A stretch of DNA of 64,000 nucleotides from Rubrobacter indicoceani (GTDB lineage Bacteria > Actinomycetota > Rubrobacteria > Rubrobacterales > Rubrobacteraceae). Below the pieces are notes generated by a model. It saw nothing but the letters and a program-made list of their open reading frames with translations, ran no database searches and was not told the DNA's origin. The stretch covers positions 2,108,001 to 2,172,000 of the forward strand of contig NZ_CP031115.1 of NCBI RefSeq assembly GCF_003568865.1. Reading direction: 5' to 3'. Both the position numbers and the translations under genes were made by a program. This document shows, one piece after another, positions 5,525-25,712 of this stretch; position 1 is the first letter of the stretch, and each line of letters begins with the position of its first letter.

Positions 5525-7471
5525 GTGAAGACGCTTGGTAAACGAACCGGGTTCCGGCGAAAGAGGCCGGGCTGGCTTAAATGGAGCTCCGAGGCGGGGT
5601 CTTCGAGCACGCTCGGCCTGAAGGCGCGGGTCTTTATCGCGCTTGTCGGCATCTCATCGGTCGCGAGCCTCGTTATCGGGCTGGTGCTGTACTACTTTGC
5701 CCAGACGCGGCTCACCGAGGCGGAGAACAACCTGCTCGAGCAGCGTTCGAGGACGGCCAACGCCGGGGCCATAGCCTTTGTGGAGGTCCAGAGAAACCCG
5801 GAGGATCAGACCCTCCCGGCCCCCGACACCTACGCCGAGGAACTCACGCAGGTCGTGGCCGACCCGACGGGTCTCGGGGTGGTGTACATCGGTCCGGGCG
5901 GGAGGCCGCTTGCCGCAAGGGACGGCCTCGGGGACTCGGCCCCGCCGGAGCAGACGCTCGAGAGCCTCGGGGTCAACCCGACGGTCATCGAGGCGGTGCA
6001 GAGTTCGTCGAGCGGCGAGGGTCGACTCGTCCGGGGCGAAGAGGGATACGTCGCCGTCTGGCCGCTCGCCGTCGGGGACGGTGCGCCGCAGGGGGTCATG
6101 GTCTACGACTCGCCGCAGGATGAGCTGTCGCAGACGCTCTCCTACCTCAGGTTCGGGATAGTCGGGGCTATCCTGACGAGCGTCGCCCTCGGCAGCCTCG
6201 CAAGCTACGTGATGGCGCGTCAGATCACCCGCCCGCTCACCGAGACCCGCGACGCCGCCATCCGCATAGCCTCCGGCGACTACAACACCAGCGTCCCCGT
6301 TACAAGCCGCGACGAGCTCGGCGAGGTCGCCCGGGCCGTCAACTACATGTCAGAGGAGATAGAGCACTACGTCGGGGAGATCCAGGAACAGAAACGTCGC
6401 CTCGAAGCGGTGCTCGAAGCCACCCCCGAAGCCCTGATAGCGACCGGCAGGGACGAGCGCGTAACGATGTCCAACCCGGCGGCGGGGATGCTCGGGGTCT
6501 CGGGGGATTCGCAGGGCCAGACCCTCGACGACCTCGGGGTAAACGGGGATCTGATCTCCTGTGTCAGACGGGCCGCCTCGGAGGGCTTCGCCGTCCGGGA
6601 GTTCGAGGAGAAGGGCAAGATCTACTGGGCCTACGCCGCCCGGATGCGGCCCGAAGCGGAAAAAACCTCGGACGGCCATCAGGACGACGGGCCGGAGATC
6701 ATCCTCGCCGTCCGGGACATAACGGAACATCGGTCGCTTGAGCGCTCAAAGACGGCGTTCGTCTCGGACGTTTCGCACGAGCTCAGGACCCCGCTGGCGA
6801 CGATACAGAGCGCAGTCGGCCTTCTGGAGCGGGCCGGTGAACGCCTCGACCCTCTGGAGCACCGCGCCCTGGAACTCGCGGAGGGCGAACTCGTACGGAT
6901 AAGGAACATGGTCGAGGAATTGTTGACGCTGGCCCAGATGGACTCCTGGAGGTACTCGCTGAGGCTCGACTCGAACAGCGTGGAGCGGATAATAGAGAAT
7001 GCCCGTCGCTCGGTGGCGGCGAAGGCCGAAAGGTTCGGCATAGAACTCGTCTCTCCGGAGAGGGGGGACGGCGGCGGGCTTCAGATCATCTGCGACGCGG
7101 AGAAGCTCTATCAGGTTTTCCTGAACCTCATAGACAACGCCGTCAAGTACTCGGAGTCCGGGGCGCGGGTCGAGGTCGTAGCGACGGAAGATCCCACGAG
7201 CGTTACCGTCTCCGTCCGGGATACGGGCCCGGGCATCCCCCCGGAGGACCTGCCACACCTCTTCGAGCGGTTTTACCGCGTGGACAAGAACCGCTCGCGG
7301 GCTACGGGCGGCAGCGGCCTCGGCCTCGCCATAAGCAAACAGATAGTTGAGATGCACGGGGGTGAGATCTCGGTCAGGAGCACACCGGGTGAGGGGTCCA
7401 CCTTTGCGGTTCGGCTGCCGAAGAACCCGCCCACAACCACCTCATCCTCGCAGGTGGTCCATGAAAAGTAG
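5525..7471 (+). CDS. Membrane sensor histidine kinase (MtrB-like, with PAS domain)
   Basis: 648 residues from a GTG start, 30 bp after the regulator. Order: a basic N-terminus, TM1 (about 35-60), an extracytoplasmic sensor region, TM2 (about 207-230), HAMP (about 230-285), a coiled coil, a PAS domain (about 292-395), HisKA with phospho-acceptor H418 (SHELRTPLA), then HATPase with N box (NLIDNAVKY), G1 (DTGPGIPPEDL), F box and G2 (GGSGLGLAI). It autophosphorylates and passes phosphate to the adjacent regulator. The PAS domain is an addition relative to mycobacterial MtrB, so signal input may differ. Its stop overlaps the next gene by 11 bp. Confidence 0.93.
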   Translation: MKTLGKRTGFRRKRPGWLKWSSEAGSSSTLGLKARVFIALVGISSVASLVIGLVLYYFAQTRLTEAENNLLEQRSRTANAGAIAFVEVQRNPEDQTLPAPDTYAEELTQVVADPTGLGVVYIGPGGRPLAARDGLGDSAPPEQTLESLGVNPTVIEAVQSSSSGEGRLVRGEEGYVAVWPLAVGDGAPQGVMVYDSPQDELSQTLSYLRFGIVGAILTSVALGSLASYVMARQITRPLTETRDAAIRIASGDYNTSVPVTSRDELGEVARAVNYMSEEIEHYVGEIQEQKRRLEAVLEATPEALIATGRDERVTMSNPAAGMLGVSGDSQGQTLDDLGVNGDLISCVRRAASEGFAVREFEEKGKIYWAYAARMRPEAEKTSDGHQDDGPEIILAVRDITEHRSLERSKTAFVSDVSHELRTPLATIQSAVGLLERAGERLDPLEHRALELAEGELVRIRNMVEELLTLAQMDSWRYSLRLDSNSVERIIENARRSVAAKAERFGIELVSPERGDGGGLQIICDAEKLYQVFLNLIDNAVKYSESGARVEVVATEDPTSVTVSVRDTGPGIPPEDLPHLFERFYRVDKNRSRATGGSGLGLAISKQIVEMHGGEISVRSTPGEGSTFAVRLPKNPPTTTSSSQVVHEK

Positions 7472-8753
7472 CCTCACATCCGCGTTCGTATTCGCGTTCG
7501 TATTCGCGTTCGCTCTCCGGGTCCGCCTCGCCCTGATCGCATCTGCGGGCTTTCTTTTAGTCGGCTGCGCGGCCTCGGAGGGCGTGCCGCTGCAACCGCT
7601 GCCGACCGGAAGCGGGGGAACGGAGTTGAGGCTCGGCGCCGACGTGAGGGCCGTCAGCGAAGGGCCGGGCTACAAGAGTTCTCCGGCGTGGAGTACGAAC
7701 GGTGAGCGGCTGTCCTACGTCGTTGACGGCTACGTTGTAGCCAGACCCGCAGCCGGAGCCTCGGGCGGCCGCGAACCCAGCGCCAGAACAGAGGCGGACT
7801 TCGGGGCGCAGGCCGCCCTCTGGGAGACCGACGGCGACCTCGGTGTCTTCGGGAGAGCCGACGAGGAATCGGGGGGCGTCTTCGAGGGCGTCAGGACTAT
7901 GACGCTCTACAACGTCCCCGAAGCCGGAGAGCCGACCGAGACCGCCGGGGGTATCATCTCCTTTGCCCGCCTCTCACCCGTCGTCCAGACCGGGGGCGTC
8001 CTTGAGCGCTACCTCGTCGCGAAGCGCAGGGGTCGGGAGAGCGAGCTCTCGGTCCTGCAGGGTTCGCAGACCCCGGACACCTACCGGCAGACCATCCCCG
8101 GCGTGGTTACGAGTGTCTCGATCTCACCGGACGAGACAAAAGCCGTTCTTGCCGTAAGGACCAGCGAAGCCGGGGAGACAAGCGAGTACCAGATAAAGAT
8201 CTTCGACCTCGTAACCGGTTCCCACACGGACCTCCTGGCCCTTGAACCGGGAAGCTACATAGCGGGGTCGCCGCAGTGGTCCTCGCGGGGTATCCACTAC
8301 CTCGCGGGCGACGAAACCCGCGAGTCCTCCAACTCGGCCCCGGAGATGACGACCGGCACGAGCGCGACAACCCAGAGGCTCTTTATAGTAAGAAACGGCC
8401 CGGACGGACCCTACGGTCAGCCCGCCCCGGGGCCGGGTTCCGGGTTTACGGCCTCCAACCTGCAACTCTCGCCGGACGGTCAGGAACTCGCGCTTATCGG
8501 GCGGTTGCGCTCGGACTCCCCGACAAACGTCTACGTTCTGGATCTCCGGGACTCGAGCCTTCGTCCGCTGACCGAGAACGAGGACATGGAGATGAAGAAC
8601 GGTCCGAACGACCTCTCATGGTCGCCCGACGGAAGATACCTCGCCATCGTAGCCCGGGGCGTCTCGCCCACCGGGCTCAAGGTGTACCCGGCCCCGGCCA
8701 GCGCCCTGCTGGAAGCCTTCTACAACGTCTATCGGGTACCGACGGAGGCGTAA
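7461..8753 (+). CDS. LpqB-like lipoprotein with a TolB/WD40-type propeller
   Basis: 430 residues from the ATG at 7461, inside the end of the kinase gene. A lipoprotein signal peptide is clear: basic and hydrophobic stretch, then LLVGC with the acylated Cys at residue 36. The rest has repeating beta-propeller motifs (SPAWSTNGERLSYV, SPQWSSRGIHYLA, LQLSPDGQELALIG, DLSWSPDGRYLAIV) typical of TolB/WD40-like repeats. In mycobacteria LpqB sits after mtrAB and modulates MtrB; context suggests the same here, but no GerMN domain is evident, so this is a shorter relative. The signal peptide contains a 12-bp tandem repeat (7482-7513) encoding FVFA units. Confidence 0.82.
   Translation: MKSSLTSAFVFAFVFAFALRVRLALIASAGFLLVGCAASEGVPLQPLPTGSGGTELRLGADVRAVSEGPGYKSSPAWSTNGERLSYVVDGYVVARPAAGASGGREPSARTEADFGAQAALWETDGDLGVFGRADEESGGVFEGVRTMTLYNVPEAGEPTETAGGIISFARLSPVVQTGGVLERYLVAKRRGRESELSVLQGSQTPDTYRQTIPGVVTSVSISPDETKAVLAVRTSEAGETSEYQIKIFDLVTGSHTDLLALEPGSYIAGSPQWSSRGIHYLAGDETRESSNSAPEMTTGTSATTQRLFIVRNGPDGPYGQPAPGPGSGFTASNLQLSPDGQELALIGRLRSDSPTNVYVLDLRDSSLRPLTENEDMEMKNGPNDLSWSPDGRYLAIVARGVSPTGLKVYPAPASALLEAFYNVYRVPTEA
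7482..7513 (+). repeat. 12-bp tandem repeat inside the lipoprotein signal peptide
   Basis: Unit GCGTTCGTATTC is present about 2.7 times, encoding repeated Ala-Phe-Val-Phe in the hydrophobic core. The unit is a multiple of three, so copy changes would alter h-region length by four residues without breaking the frame. Confidence 0.8.
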
Positions 8754-23463: not shown

Positions 23464-23880
23464 ATGGACATTCTGTACACGGCGACGGCTACGGCGCACG
23501 GCGGTCGTGAGGGCCGGGTGGAGAGCTCGGACGGAAAGATAAACGAGAACCTCGTCGTTCCGGAGGGCATGGGCGGCCCCGGCGGCGACGGCACCAACCC
23601 CGAGCAGCTCTTTGCCGCCGGATACGCGGCCTGCTTTGAGGGCGCGCTGCGGCTGGTGGCGGGCAAGCAGAAAAAAGACGTCGGCGACGCTTCGGTAACG
23701 GCCAACGTCGGCATCGGCCCGGAGGGCAAGAGCTTTGCCCTTGAAGTGGAGCTTGTGGGCTCCGTGCCCGGTGTATCCCGTGAGGAGGCCGAGAGGCTGA
23801 TGCAGGACGCTCACGAAGTCTGCCCGTACTCGAAGGCGACGCGAGGAAACGTGGAGGTTACGCTCAGCGTCGCCGACTGA
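23464..23880 (+). CDS. ohr: Organic hydroperoxide resistance protein (Ohr, OsmC family)
   Basis: 138 residues, standard length. Two redox cysteines are present in their family contexts: the peroxidatic one in GYAACFEGAL and the resolving one in HEVCPYSKATRGN. The N-terminus (LYTATATAHGGREG) is typical of Ohr rather than OsmC. Ohr reduces organic and fatty-acid hydroperoxides using lipoyl-dependent electrons. It stands alone between two operons and is followed by a strong terminator. Confidence 0.94.
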   Translation: MDILYTATATAHGGREGRVESSDGKINENLVVPEGMGGPGGDGTNPEQLFAAGYAACFEGALRLVAGKQKKDVGDASVTANVGIGPEGKSFALEVELVGSVPGVSREEAERLMQDAHEVCPYSKATRGNVEVTLSVAD

Positions 23881-23903: not shown

Positions 23904-23937
23904 GGCGGAACCCTTTGTCGGGGTTCCGCCCGTTTTA
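23904..23937 (+). terminator. Rho-independent terminator after ohr
   Basis: A 10-bp perfect stem (GGCGGAACCC at 23904-23913 with its complement at 23921-23930) and a 7-nt loop is followed by CGTTTT. It lies 24 bp after the ohr stop and also faces the convergent ferritin-like gene. Confidence 0.85.
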
Positions 23938-23973: not shown

Positions 23974-24697
23974 CTAGGGGCCGGTCTCCGGCTGGATGGT
24001 ATCCGGGAGCTTGTCCACAAAGGCCTGGAAGTTCCCGTAGGGTCCGTAGGGCTCCGGCGTTCCGGTGATGAAACCGGTCCCGAGAACGGCGTCTACGATA
24101 TCGGTCGGGGCGACGGCCGCGTCAAAGGAGTCCGGGAAGGGAAATTCCCCGTTCAGGCCGTTGAGGTAGGCCGCGTGGCGGGCCTCGACGGTGGCTATGG
24201 TCGCCCCGTAGGTCAGGTTCTCGGCCCCGCTTATGTGGGCTATGGCCCCGTCGTAAGCCGAGACGCCCGTGTTCTCGAGAAGCTGTGCCGTAGCGTAGAA
24301 TCTCCTGATCCCGGTGAACTTGAAGTCGTAGGTTGCCGCCGGTACGGCCTGATCTCCGAGCGCCCCCGTCAGGAAGTCCACGTGTTCGTTCTCGTGCTTT
24401 CGGATCAGCTGTATCCGCTTGCGCTCGCTGTTACCGAAAGCTCTGCGGAACTTCGCAAAGCCCTGGTTGTAGAATGCCGCTTCGAGATGCTCCAGCGTAA
24501 GGGCGTAGTTGAGGATGTCCACATCGGTGTAGGTCGCCTCGGTAGTGTGCGCCCCGGCAGCGCCCGGCAGCGCCCGGCAGCACGCCCGCGAGCGCACCCG
24601 CCCCGAGAACCCCCGCCGTACCGAACAGGAACCCTCTGCGCGAGAGGCTCGACCCGGCCTCTTCCGCCGCAGCCCCGATCTGCGCTTTCCCGGTCAT
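23974..24697 (-). pseudogene. Tat-exported ferritin-like protein, frameshifted at a 10-bp tandem repeat
   Basis: The first frame starts at ATG 24697 and gives a twin-arginine signal (SSLSRRGFLFGTAGVLGAGA...). The mature domain is in another frame, beginning AHTTEATYTDVDILNYAL. It has the ferritin-like helices LEHLEAAFYNQGF and HENEHVDFL, with Glu/His ligand candidates, as in the desiccation-related Ferritin_2 family. The break falls in three copies of a 10-bp unit (24551-24580). With two copies the reading would run straight from VLPGAAG into AHTTEA. As written the protein is not made in full. It may be phase-variable, recently inactivated, or a sequencing error. Confidence 0.85.
24551..24580. 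repeat. 10-bp tandem repeat, three copies, frame-setting
   Basis: Two identical copies of CGCCCGGCAG (24561-24570, 24571-24580) and one near-identical copy (24551-24560, differing in its first two bases). It lies between the signal peptide and mature domain of the ferritin-like gene; each unit gained or lost shifts the frame by one base. Confidence 0.9.
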
Positions 24698-24851: not shown

Positions 24852-25712
24852 CTAGGTTGTTCGACTGCCTTCCAGCAAGACTTTCGCGATAAGCTTCGGG
24901 GCGTCGTAGGTCGGGACGTGGCCGCAGCCGGGGAGCCTTACAGACCGGGTCTGCGGCGGCAGCTCCCGGAGGTCCTGCGCCAGCCCCGGAAGAAGGACCT
25001 TCTCCCTTGCCCCGAACGCGACGGTGACCGGCACGGCTATGCTGCGTCCGTCCCTGAAACGCTCGTTGCGTCCGTCCGCTATCACCCTCGGAATGCCCGG
25101 TGAGTACGTGAAGCCTTCAAGGGTTTCAAGGGCCTCCCTTGCCGTGAGCCGCCACGGACGCCCGAAGAACTGCCCGACGAGCAGCGACCTGAGCACCGGG
25201 TCCGAGGCGATGCGGGGCGCAAGGGCGCCAAACCAGCTGGTCATGGCGTAGCTTGCAAAAAACACCGCCCCGATGTACGGCGGCGGGCTCCCCGGCCAGA
25301 GCCCCGCCGGAGACAGACCCGTAACGGATCTCGCCCGACCGAGCTTTGCAAGCTCCAGAGATATCCACCCCCCGAGCGAGTTCCCCGCCAGATGCGCCTT
25401 TCCGTCCGGCAGGTCCAGATCGTCCATAAACTCCGCAACCCTCCCGGCGAGCCCGCTCGGGGCAAACGAAGCCCGCCCGCCGGAGAGCGCGGACGCGCCG
25501 TGTCCGGGGAGGTCTATGGAGATCACCTCCCTCTCCCCTGCCAGCGCGTCGAGCACCGGCTCGAAGACCTGCCAGCGACTCCCGACGCCGTGAATAAGGA
25601 TAAGCGGCTCCCCCGACCCGCGACGGTCGTGGTTCAGGTGGTTCGGTGACGCTGCGGTGAGAGATTTCGAGGCTGAGACCGGACGGCGGTTCCCCGACCG
25701 GGCTCTAACCAT
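24852..25712 (-). CDS. Alpha/beta-fold hydrolase
   Basis: 286 residues. Features in order: oxyanion region LILIHGVGSRWQVFEP, strand and loop ISIDLPGHGASA, nucleophile elbow AGNSLGGW (Ser), an acid candidate in the VTVAFGAREKVLLPG region and a late His in GCGHVPTYDAP. This is a complete esterase/lipase-like catalytic set. The start overlaps the PPOX gene by 8 bp, making it the last gene of a tight four-gene minus-strand operon with enoyl-CoA hydratase and thioesterase. A role in lipid or CoA-ester breakdown is inferred. Confidence 0.85.
   Translation of the reverse strand: MVRARSGNRRPVSASKSLTAASPNHLNHDRRGSGEPLILIHGVGSRWQVFEPVLDALAGEREVISIDLPGHGASALSGGRASFAPSGLAGRVAEFMDDLDLPDGKAHLAGNSLGGWISLELAKLGRARSVTGLSPAGLWPGSPPPYIGAVFFASYAMTSWFGALAPRIASDPVLRSLLVGQFFGRPWRLTAREALETLEGFTYSPGIPRVIADGRNERFRDGRSIAVPVTVAFGAREKVLLPGLAQDLRELPPQTRSVRLPGCGHVPTYDAPKLIAKVLLEGSRTT

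What the first reader, a model, noticed from the sequence alone, without database searches (positions are those of the whole stretch)
23974..24697. Ferritin-like Tat protein switched off by one extra copy of a 10-bp repeat
The Tat signal and the ferritin-like domain are both intact but in different frames. The junction is exactly three copies of a 10-bp unit (24551-24580). Reading with two copies joins VLPGAAG directly to AHTTEA in frame. Because 10 is not a multiple of 3, copy number sets ON or OFF. Slipped-strand phase variation is well known in other bacteria, but a phase-variable exported ferritin/desiccation-type protein would be new as far as I know.
Basis: partly seen in the sequence, partly recalled or inferred. 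Interest (0 to 1): 0.78.

Follow-up and report, generated by a model that had tools for sequence, protein, structure and literature searches.

The report
Ferritin-like gene broken by repeat duplication
An exported ferritin-like protein gene of a Rubrobacter-type bacterium is knocked out of frame by one extra copy of a 10-base repeat; this looks like an ordinary, possibly reversible, slippage mutation, and nothing tested here shows that it is a regulated on/off switch.

Summary
On the minus strand (start 24697, stop 23974) a twin-arginine-type signal and a complete Ferritin_2 (PF13668) domain lie in different frames. The switch falls on a perfect 29-bp run of a 10-bp unit (24553-24581, 2.9 copies). 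Codon bias puts the frame change at the same place. In the two-copy register the RR-to-domain spacing is 33 residues, exactly as in two intact relatives and within one of three more; one extra copy is the only inactivating lesion found. The repeat is not a chance pattern: no comparable run arose in 9.3 Mb of simulated sequence or elsewhere in 464 kb sampled from this genome (window included).

The phase-variation reading is not established. No relative carries the repeat, the sister species lacks the gene, no other gene in the sample is broken this way, and the two-copy state is only a 9-bp direct repeat. The best reading is a recent slippage duplication that inactivated a dispensable gene and can probably revert. 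The genome keeps two intact paralogues. Reads or other isolates would decide; neither could be reached. The only solved relative is the tardigrade phosphatase RvFeMP-1, so 'iron storage' should not be assumed.

The parts
24563..24697 (-). N-terminal part in frame A: start ATG 24697, twin-arginine-type signal SRRGFLFGTAGVLGAGALAGVLPGAAG
   Evidence: Translation; PF10518 TAT_signal 17.2 bits (cut-off 22.7) and TIGR01409 13.3 bits (cut-off 16.7), both below cut-off; aligned region in relatives carries the same SRR/K-x-F-L signal
24553..24581 (.). 10-bp tandem repeat CCCGGCAGCG, 2.9 perfect copies; frame A ends and frame B begins here
   Evidence: codon-bias frame switch 24571 to 24543; two-copy unit found only here in the genome, 1 mismatch allowed
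23974..24562 (-). Ferritin_2 domain in frame B, open to its stop; all conserved metal-ligand positions of the subfamily present
   Evidence: PF13668 1.5e-40, 138.9 bits; invariant E36, E69, H72, E108, E138 and H141 in the alignment; AlphaFold2 four-helix bundle, mean pLDDT 87.9
24431..24552 (-). Out-of-frame tail read by frame A after the repeat, ending at a stop near 24433 (predicted product about 88 residues, no domain)
23904..23930 (+). Terminator-like hairpin after the OsmC gene (plus strand), facing the ferritin gene's stop
   Evidence: 11 pairs, T-rich tail
23464..23880 (+). Neighbour: OsmC-family protein, converging with the ferritin-like gene
   Evidence: PF02566 2e-18; orthologue in sister species G001, 87%
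24852..25712 (-). Neighbour: alpha/beta hydrolase; in G001 it lies directly next to OsmC, with no ferritin-like gene between
   Evidence: PF12697 1.1e-20; G001 orthologue, 69%, 79 bp from OsmC match

Best explanation
The gene codes for a Tat-exported (or similarly exported) PF13668 protein and has been inactivated by one recent slippage duplication of a 10-bp unit at the signal/domain junction. The inferred earlier state held GCTGCCGGG C GCTGCCGGG, a 9-bp direct repeat in a GC-rich stretch, and misalignment during replication would add a copy. As written, the ribosome starts at 24697, makes the signal, leaves the ferritin frame in the repeat and stops about 88 residues in, so no ferritin-like protein is exported. 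Loss of a copy by the same slippage would switch it back on, so the allele is probably revertible, but nothing shows it is maintained as a switch. Shown: the break, its place, the absence of other inactivating lesions, intact relatives. Inferred: slippage as the origin, recency, revertibility, dispensability.
For: Single lesion: ferritin frame open for 207 codons with PF13668 at 1.5e-40 and codon bias strong on the domain. Two-copy register gives 24+9=33 residues between RR and DVDILNYA, as in L004 and L006 (33), against 32 in L007, L062, L063. Relatives intact and without the repeat. Gene is dispensable in this lineage: absent from the same site in sister species G001 and found above the 1e-20 threshold in only 10 of 40 family genomes. 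Two intact PF13668-type paralogues sit in tandem elsewhere in the genome. Spontaneous short tandem duplications inside ORFs are a known way to lose function (Waite 2001 and 2003, cited in PMC4022640).
Against: No reads or second isolate, so an assembly or consensus error is not excluded. A three-copy run is rarer than a two-copy one in this genome, which leaves room for an active repeat. The domain has otherwise stayed intact, as expected for a gene that is still sometimes ON.
Confidence: 0.72

Rival explanations
1. A true phase-variable (contingency) locus: copy number of the 10-bp unit changes often by slipped-strand mispairing, giving mixed ON and OFF cells, and this has been kept by selection.
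For: Unit length not a multiple of three, placed just after the signal so that loss of one copy restores the whole protein; product probably exported, as with many phase-variable proteins; repeat exceptional in this genome. Copy-number change of few-copy tandem repeats within a culture is reported in another actinobacterium, M. tuberculosis, though in promoters (PMC12817950).
Against: Only 2.9 copies. No repeat in any of seven relatives' genes examined. No other gene of this type in a 464-kb sample. No population data.
Confidence: 0.12
2. Assembly or consensus error: the real genome has two copies and the gene is intact.
For: The two-copy protein fits its relatives exactly; no reads could be inspected; errors at tandem repeats are reported even in reference genomes (PMC12817950).
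Against: A 10-bp unit added exactly is not the usual homopolymer error; the 29-bp array is short enough for any read to span; the assembly is near complete (3 contigs, 99.99% complete, 0.94% contamination) and frame breaks are rare in the sample.
Confidence: 0.1
3. The protein is still made: either from an in-frame start inside the ferritin frame (GTG 24597 or the GTG of DVD near 24520), giving a cytoplasmic form, or by +1 ribosomal frameshifting in the repeat.
For: The ferritin frame is open upstream to 24693 and has a GTG at 24597; the domain is intact.
Against: No clear ribosome-binding site before either GTG (read); the frame A stop lies far downstream, so translational coupling is not helped; the new N-terminus MRSRACCRALPGAAG has no counterpart in relatives and is predicted disordered; no conserved slippery site, since relatives have no frame break.
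Confidence: 0.06

Closest known systems
Spontaneous sequence duplications within pneumococcal capsule ORFs (cap8E, tts, type 3 locus; Waite et al. 2001, 2003, cited in PMC4022640; details from own knowledge)
   Same: A short tandem duplication inside an ORF shifts the frame and removes function; loss of the copy restores it
   Different: There, switching was seen in culture in both directions; here there is one static sequence in an unrelated organism
Slipped-strand phase-variable genes as classified in PMC3711429 (GeneTack)
   Same: Frame transition at a tandem repeat
   Different: That classification needs a cluster of homologous frame-shifted genes plus a known phase-variable function; here there is a single case and intact relatives
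Promoter tandem-repeat copy-number variation in Mycobacterium tuberculosis (PMC12817950)
   Same: Few-copy tandem repeats in a GC-rich actinobacterium, two or three copies in one population
   Different: Units of about 50 bp in promoters that tune expression; not a coding frameshift
RvFeMP-1 / DRB0118, ferritin-like metabolite phosphatases of PF13668 (8kce, 8w9k; PMC11616004)
   Same: Same Pfam family and fold; only sequence match in the PDB at E<0.1 (6.9e-12) and the best fold match (E 5e-7); ligands E51, E90, H93, E132 retained
   Different: D135 is Gly and D162 is Glu here; tardigrade protein has an extra IgG-like domain; activity not tested

Membership tests
PF13668 Ferritin_2 | Profile match above gathering score | tested here: met
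   138.9 bits against 24.7, profile 1-137 of 138
PF13668 Ferritin_2 | Four-helix bundle with two-metal ligand set | tested here: met
   Helices 25-53, 56-83, 97-119, 125-148; invariant E36, E69, H72, E108, E138 and near-invariant H141
Ferritin-like metabolite phosphatase (RvFeMP-1/DRB0118 type) | Metal ligands E51, E90, H93, E132, D135, D162 | tested here: inconclusive
   Four identical, D162 to E, D135 to G
Ferritin-like metabolite phosphatase (RvFeMP-1/DRB0118 type) | Phosphatase activity | not testable with these tools
   Needs an assay
Tat-exported protein | Twin-arginine signal recognised by profile | tested here: inconclusive
   SRRGFLF followed by a hydrophobic stretch; PF10518 17.2 bits (cut-off 22.7), TIGR01409 13.3 (cut-off 16.7)
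Slipped-strand phase-variable locus | Tandem repeat in the ORF with a unit that is not a multiple of three | tested here: met
   10 bp x 2.9
Slipped-strand phase-variable locus | Loss or gain of one unit restores the reading frame of the full protein | tested here: met
   Spacing of the two pieces equals that in intact relatives
Slipped-strand phase-variable locus | Copy number varies within or between isolates | not testable with these tools
   One genome of the species; no reads held
Slipped-strand phase-variable locus | Repeat tract kept in orthologues or used at several loci of the genome | tested here: not met
   No tract at the junction in seven relatives; no second gene-breaking tract in 464 kb
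Frameshift pseudogene or recent null allele | Inactivating lesion in a gene that is intact in relatives | tested here: met
Frameshift pseudogene or recent null allele | Further decay | tested here: not met
   No other stop or frame break; only in-frame length differences from relatives, e.g. 3 residues in helix 2. Consistent with recency

The most novel reading that the evidence does not exclude
An exported ferritin-like (possibly metabolite-phosphatase) stress protein of a radiation- and desiccation-tolerant actinobacterial lineage is switched on and off by copy number of a 10-bp coding repeat, giving mixed populations.
Probability: 0.12. Interest if true: 0.5.

Novelty: new member of a known kind. 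Interest (0 to 1): 0.22.

Why it matters
If it were a real switch, it would be a coding-repeat phase-variation case in a free-living, stress-tolerant actinobacterium, where such loci are little studied, and it would tie cell-to-cell variation to a stress protein. On the present evidence it matters mainly as a warning for annotation: an intact domain behind a short tandem duplication may be called either a pseudogene or a cytoplasmic protein, and both the export signal and the ON form would be missed.

Tried and rejected
Looking for a second strain of the species: the genome collections hold one genome per species, and the only congeneric genome (G001) lacks the gene. A 14-bp x 3 repeat elsewhere (L077 7207-7249) looked like a second case, but it lies at the very end of a small gene and in the spacer next to rpiA-like DNA and breaks no domain. 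Other frame-change candidates from codon bias: L073 19054-19561 is two overlapping genes (PucR HTH and TOBE), and L088 18238-18790 is a truncated response regulator without a tandem repeat; L083 8151-10323 was not followed up. A single-base indel upstream in the C/G runs was considered instead of the repeat: it would take the frame off before the hydrophobic part of the signal, so it does not fit the relatives. Programmed frameshifting: no support from relatives. Literature searches for phase variation in Rubrobacter, for ferritin with slipped-strand, and for the likely strain's genome report gave nothing direct.

Full report
What is there. The gene lies on the minus strand. From ATG 24697 it reads a twin-arginine-type signal, SRRGFLFGTAGVLGAGALAGVLPGAAG, and then runs out of the ferritin frame and stops about 88 residues in. 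The ferritin frame is open from upstream of the repeat to its stop at 23974. It matches PF13668 Ferritin_2 over nearly the whole profile (1.5e-40). The two frames meet in a perfect 29-bp run of the 10-bp unit CCCGGCAGCG at 24553-24581.

Is it more than chance? Yes. In the window plus twenty 20-kb stretches of the same genome (464 kb, about 15%), it is the only run of at least 2.8 perfect copies with a unit of 7 bp or more that is not a multiple of three. Twenty simulated sequences of that size gave none. The doubled unit occurs nowhere else in the genome, even with one mismatch. A codon-bias scan that knows nothing of homology ends coding frame A at 24571 and begins frame B at 24543, on the repeat.

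Is one extra copy the whole cause? The signal piece has 24 residues between RR and the end of LPGAAG, and the ferritin frame has 9 more to DVDILNYA. The sum, 33, is what the two-copy register would give; L004 and L006 have 33, and L007, L062 and L063 have 32. No further stop or frame break is present. This was done by counting the two pieces.

Relatives and surroundings. The named relatives are Rubrobacteraceae assemblies, so the window is from that family; that it may be Rubrobacter indicoceani is my guess from genome size and replicon number and was not tested. Ten of 40 family genomes have a close relative at E<=1e-20, all with open frames and, in the seven examined, no 10-bp tract at the junction. 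The one congeneric genome, G001, has the OsmC and hydrolase neighbours side by side, 79 bp apart, with no ferritin-like gene. The gene is therefore patchy and dispensable over evolution. The genome has two further PF13668-type genes in tandem at C1:1619740-1620850, 32-35% identical, intact and with signal-like N-termini.

What the protein would do. AlphaFold2 gives a confident four-helix bundle (mean pLDDT 87.9). The only PDB sequence match at E<0.1 is RvY_06210 = RvFeMP-1 of a tardigrade (6.9e-12), also the best fold match (5e-7). That protein and Deinococcus DRB0118 have phosphatase activity on metabolites, including damaged nucleotides (PMC11616004). Of its six metal ligands, four are identical here, D162 is Glu and D135 is Gly (the numbering offset of 3 was inferred from the alignment). 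So an exported two-metal enzyme is plausible and iron storage is not implied. Function is inference.

How it most likely arose and works. Take away one unit and the site is GCTGCCGGG C GCTGCCGGG, a 9-bp direct repeat one base apart, of the kind this genome has by chance (about 3.7 two-copy runs expected, 12 observed, per 464 kb). Replication slippage there adds 10 bp and shifts the frame. The reverse event restores it. That makes the OFF allele probably revertible, as in the pneumococcal capsule duplications of Waite et al. (cited in PMC4022640), but revertible is not the same as maintained as a switch. The features that would mark a contingency locus, variation among isolates and a tract kept in orthologues or reused in the genome, are respectively untestable here and not found.

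Verdict. Observation confirmed; interpretation partly supported. Most likely a recent null allele made by a tandem duplication (0.72); phase-variable locus 0.12; assembly error 0.10; alternative translation 0.06. The decisive test is simply counting copies in reads and colonies.

Noticed in passing
L077:7207-7249 (own genome C1, about 667207-667249): A 14-bp unit repeated 3.1 times at the end of a small gene (ORF 7235-7516, minus strand) and in the spacer after an rpiA-like ORF; the other short triplicate seen in the sample.
   Followed up: partly
L088:18221-18673, minus strand (own genome C1): A response-regulator receiver domain (profile 1-66 of 111) runs into what reads, in another frame, like the end of a histidine kinase (GLGLAIAK...), as if a two-component pair had lost its middle; no tandem repeat there.
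   Followed up: partly
own genome C1:1619740-1620850 (L002, L003): Two intact PF13668-type genes in tandem; the same paired arrangement recurs in many family genomes (two neighbouring matches per genome), suggesting a conserved pair.
   Followed up: no
window 23974-24562, helix 2 of the domain: The domain is three residues shorter in helix 2 and has a shorter linker after helix 1 than its closest relatives; in-frame, so not inactivating, but might reflect relaxed constraint.
   Followed up: no
464-kb sample of the genome: Two-copy tandem runs with unit not a multiple of three number 12 against about 3.7 expected from a second-order Markov model, a mild excess.
   Followed up: no
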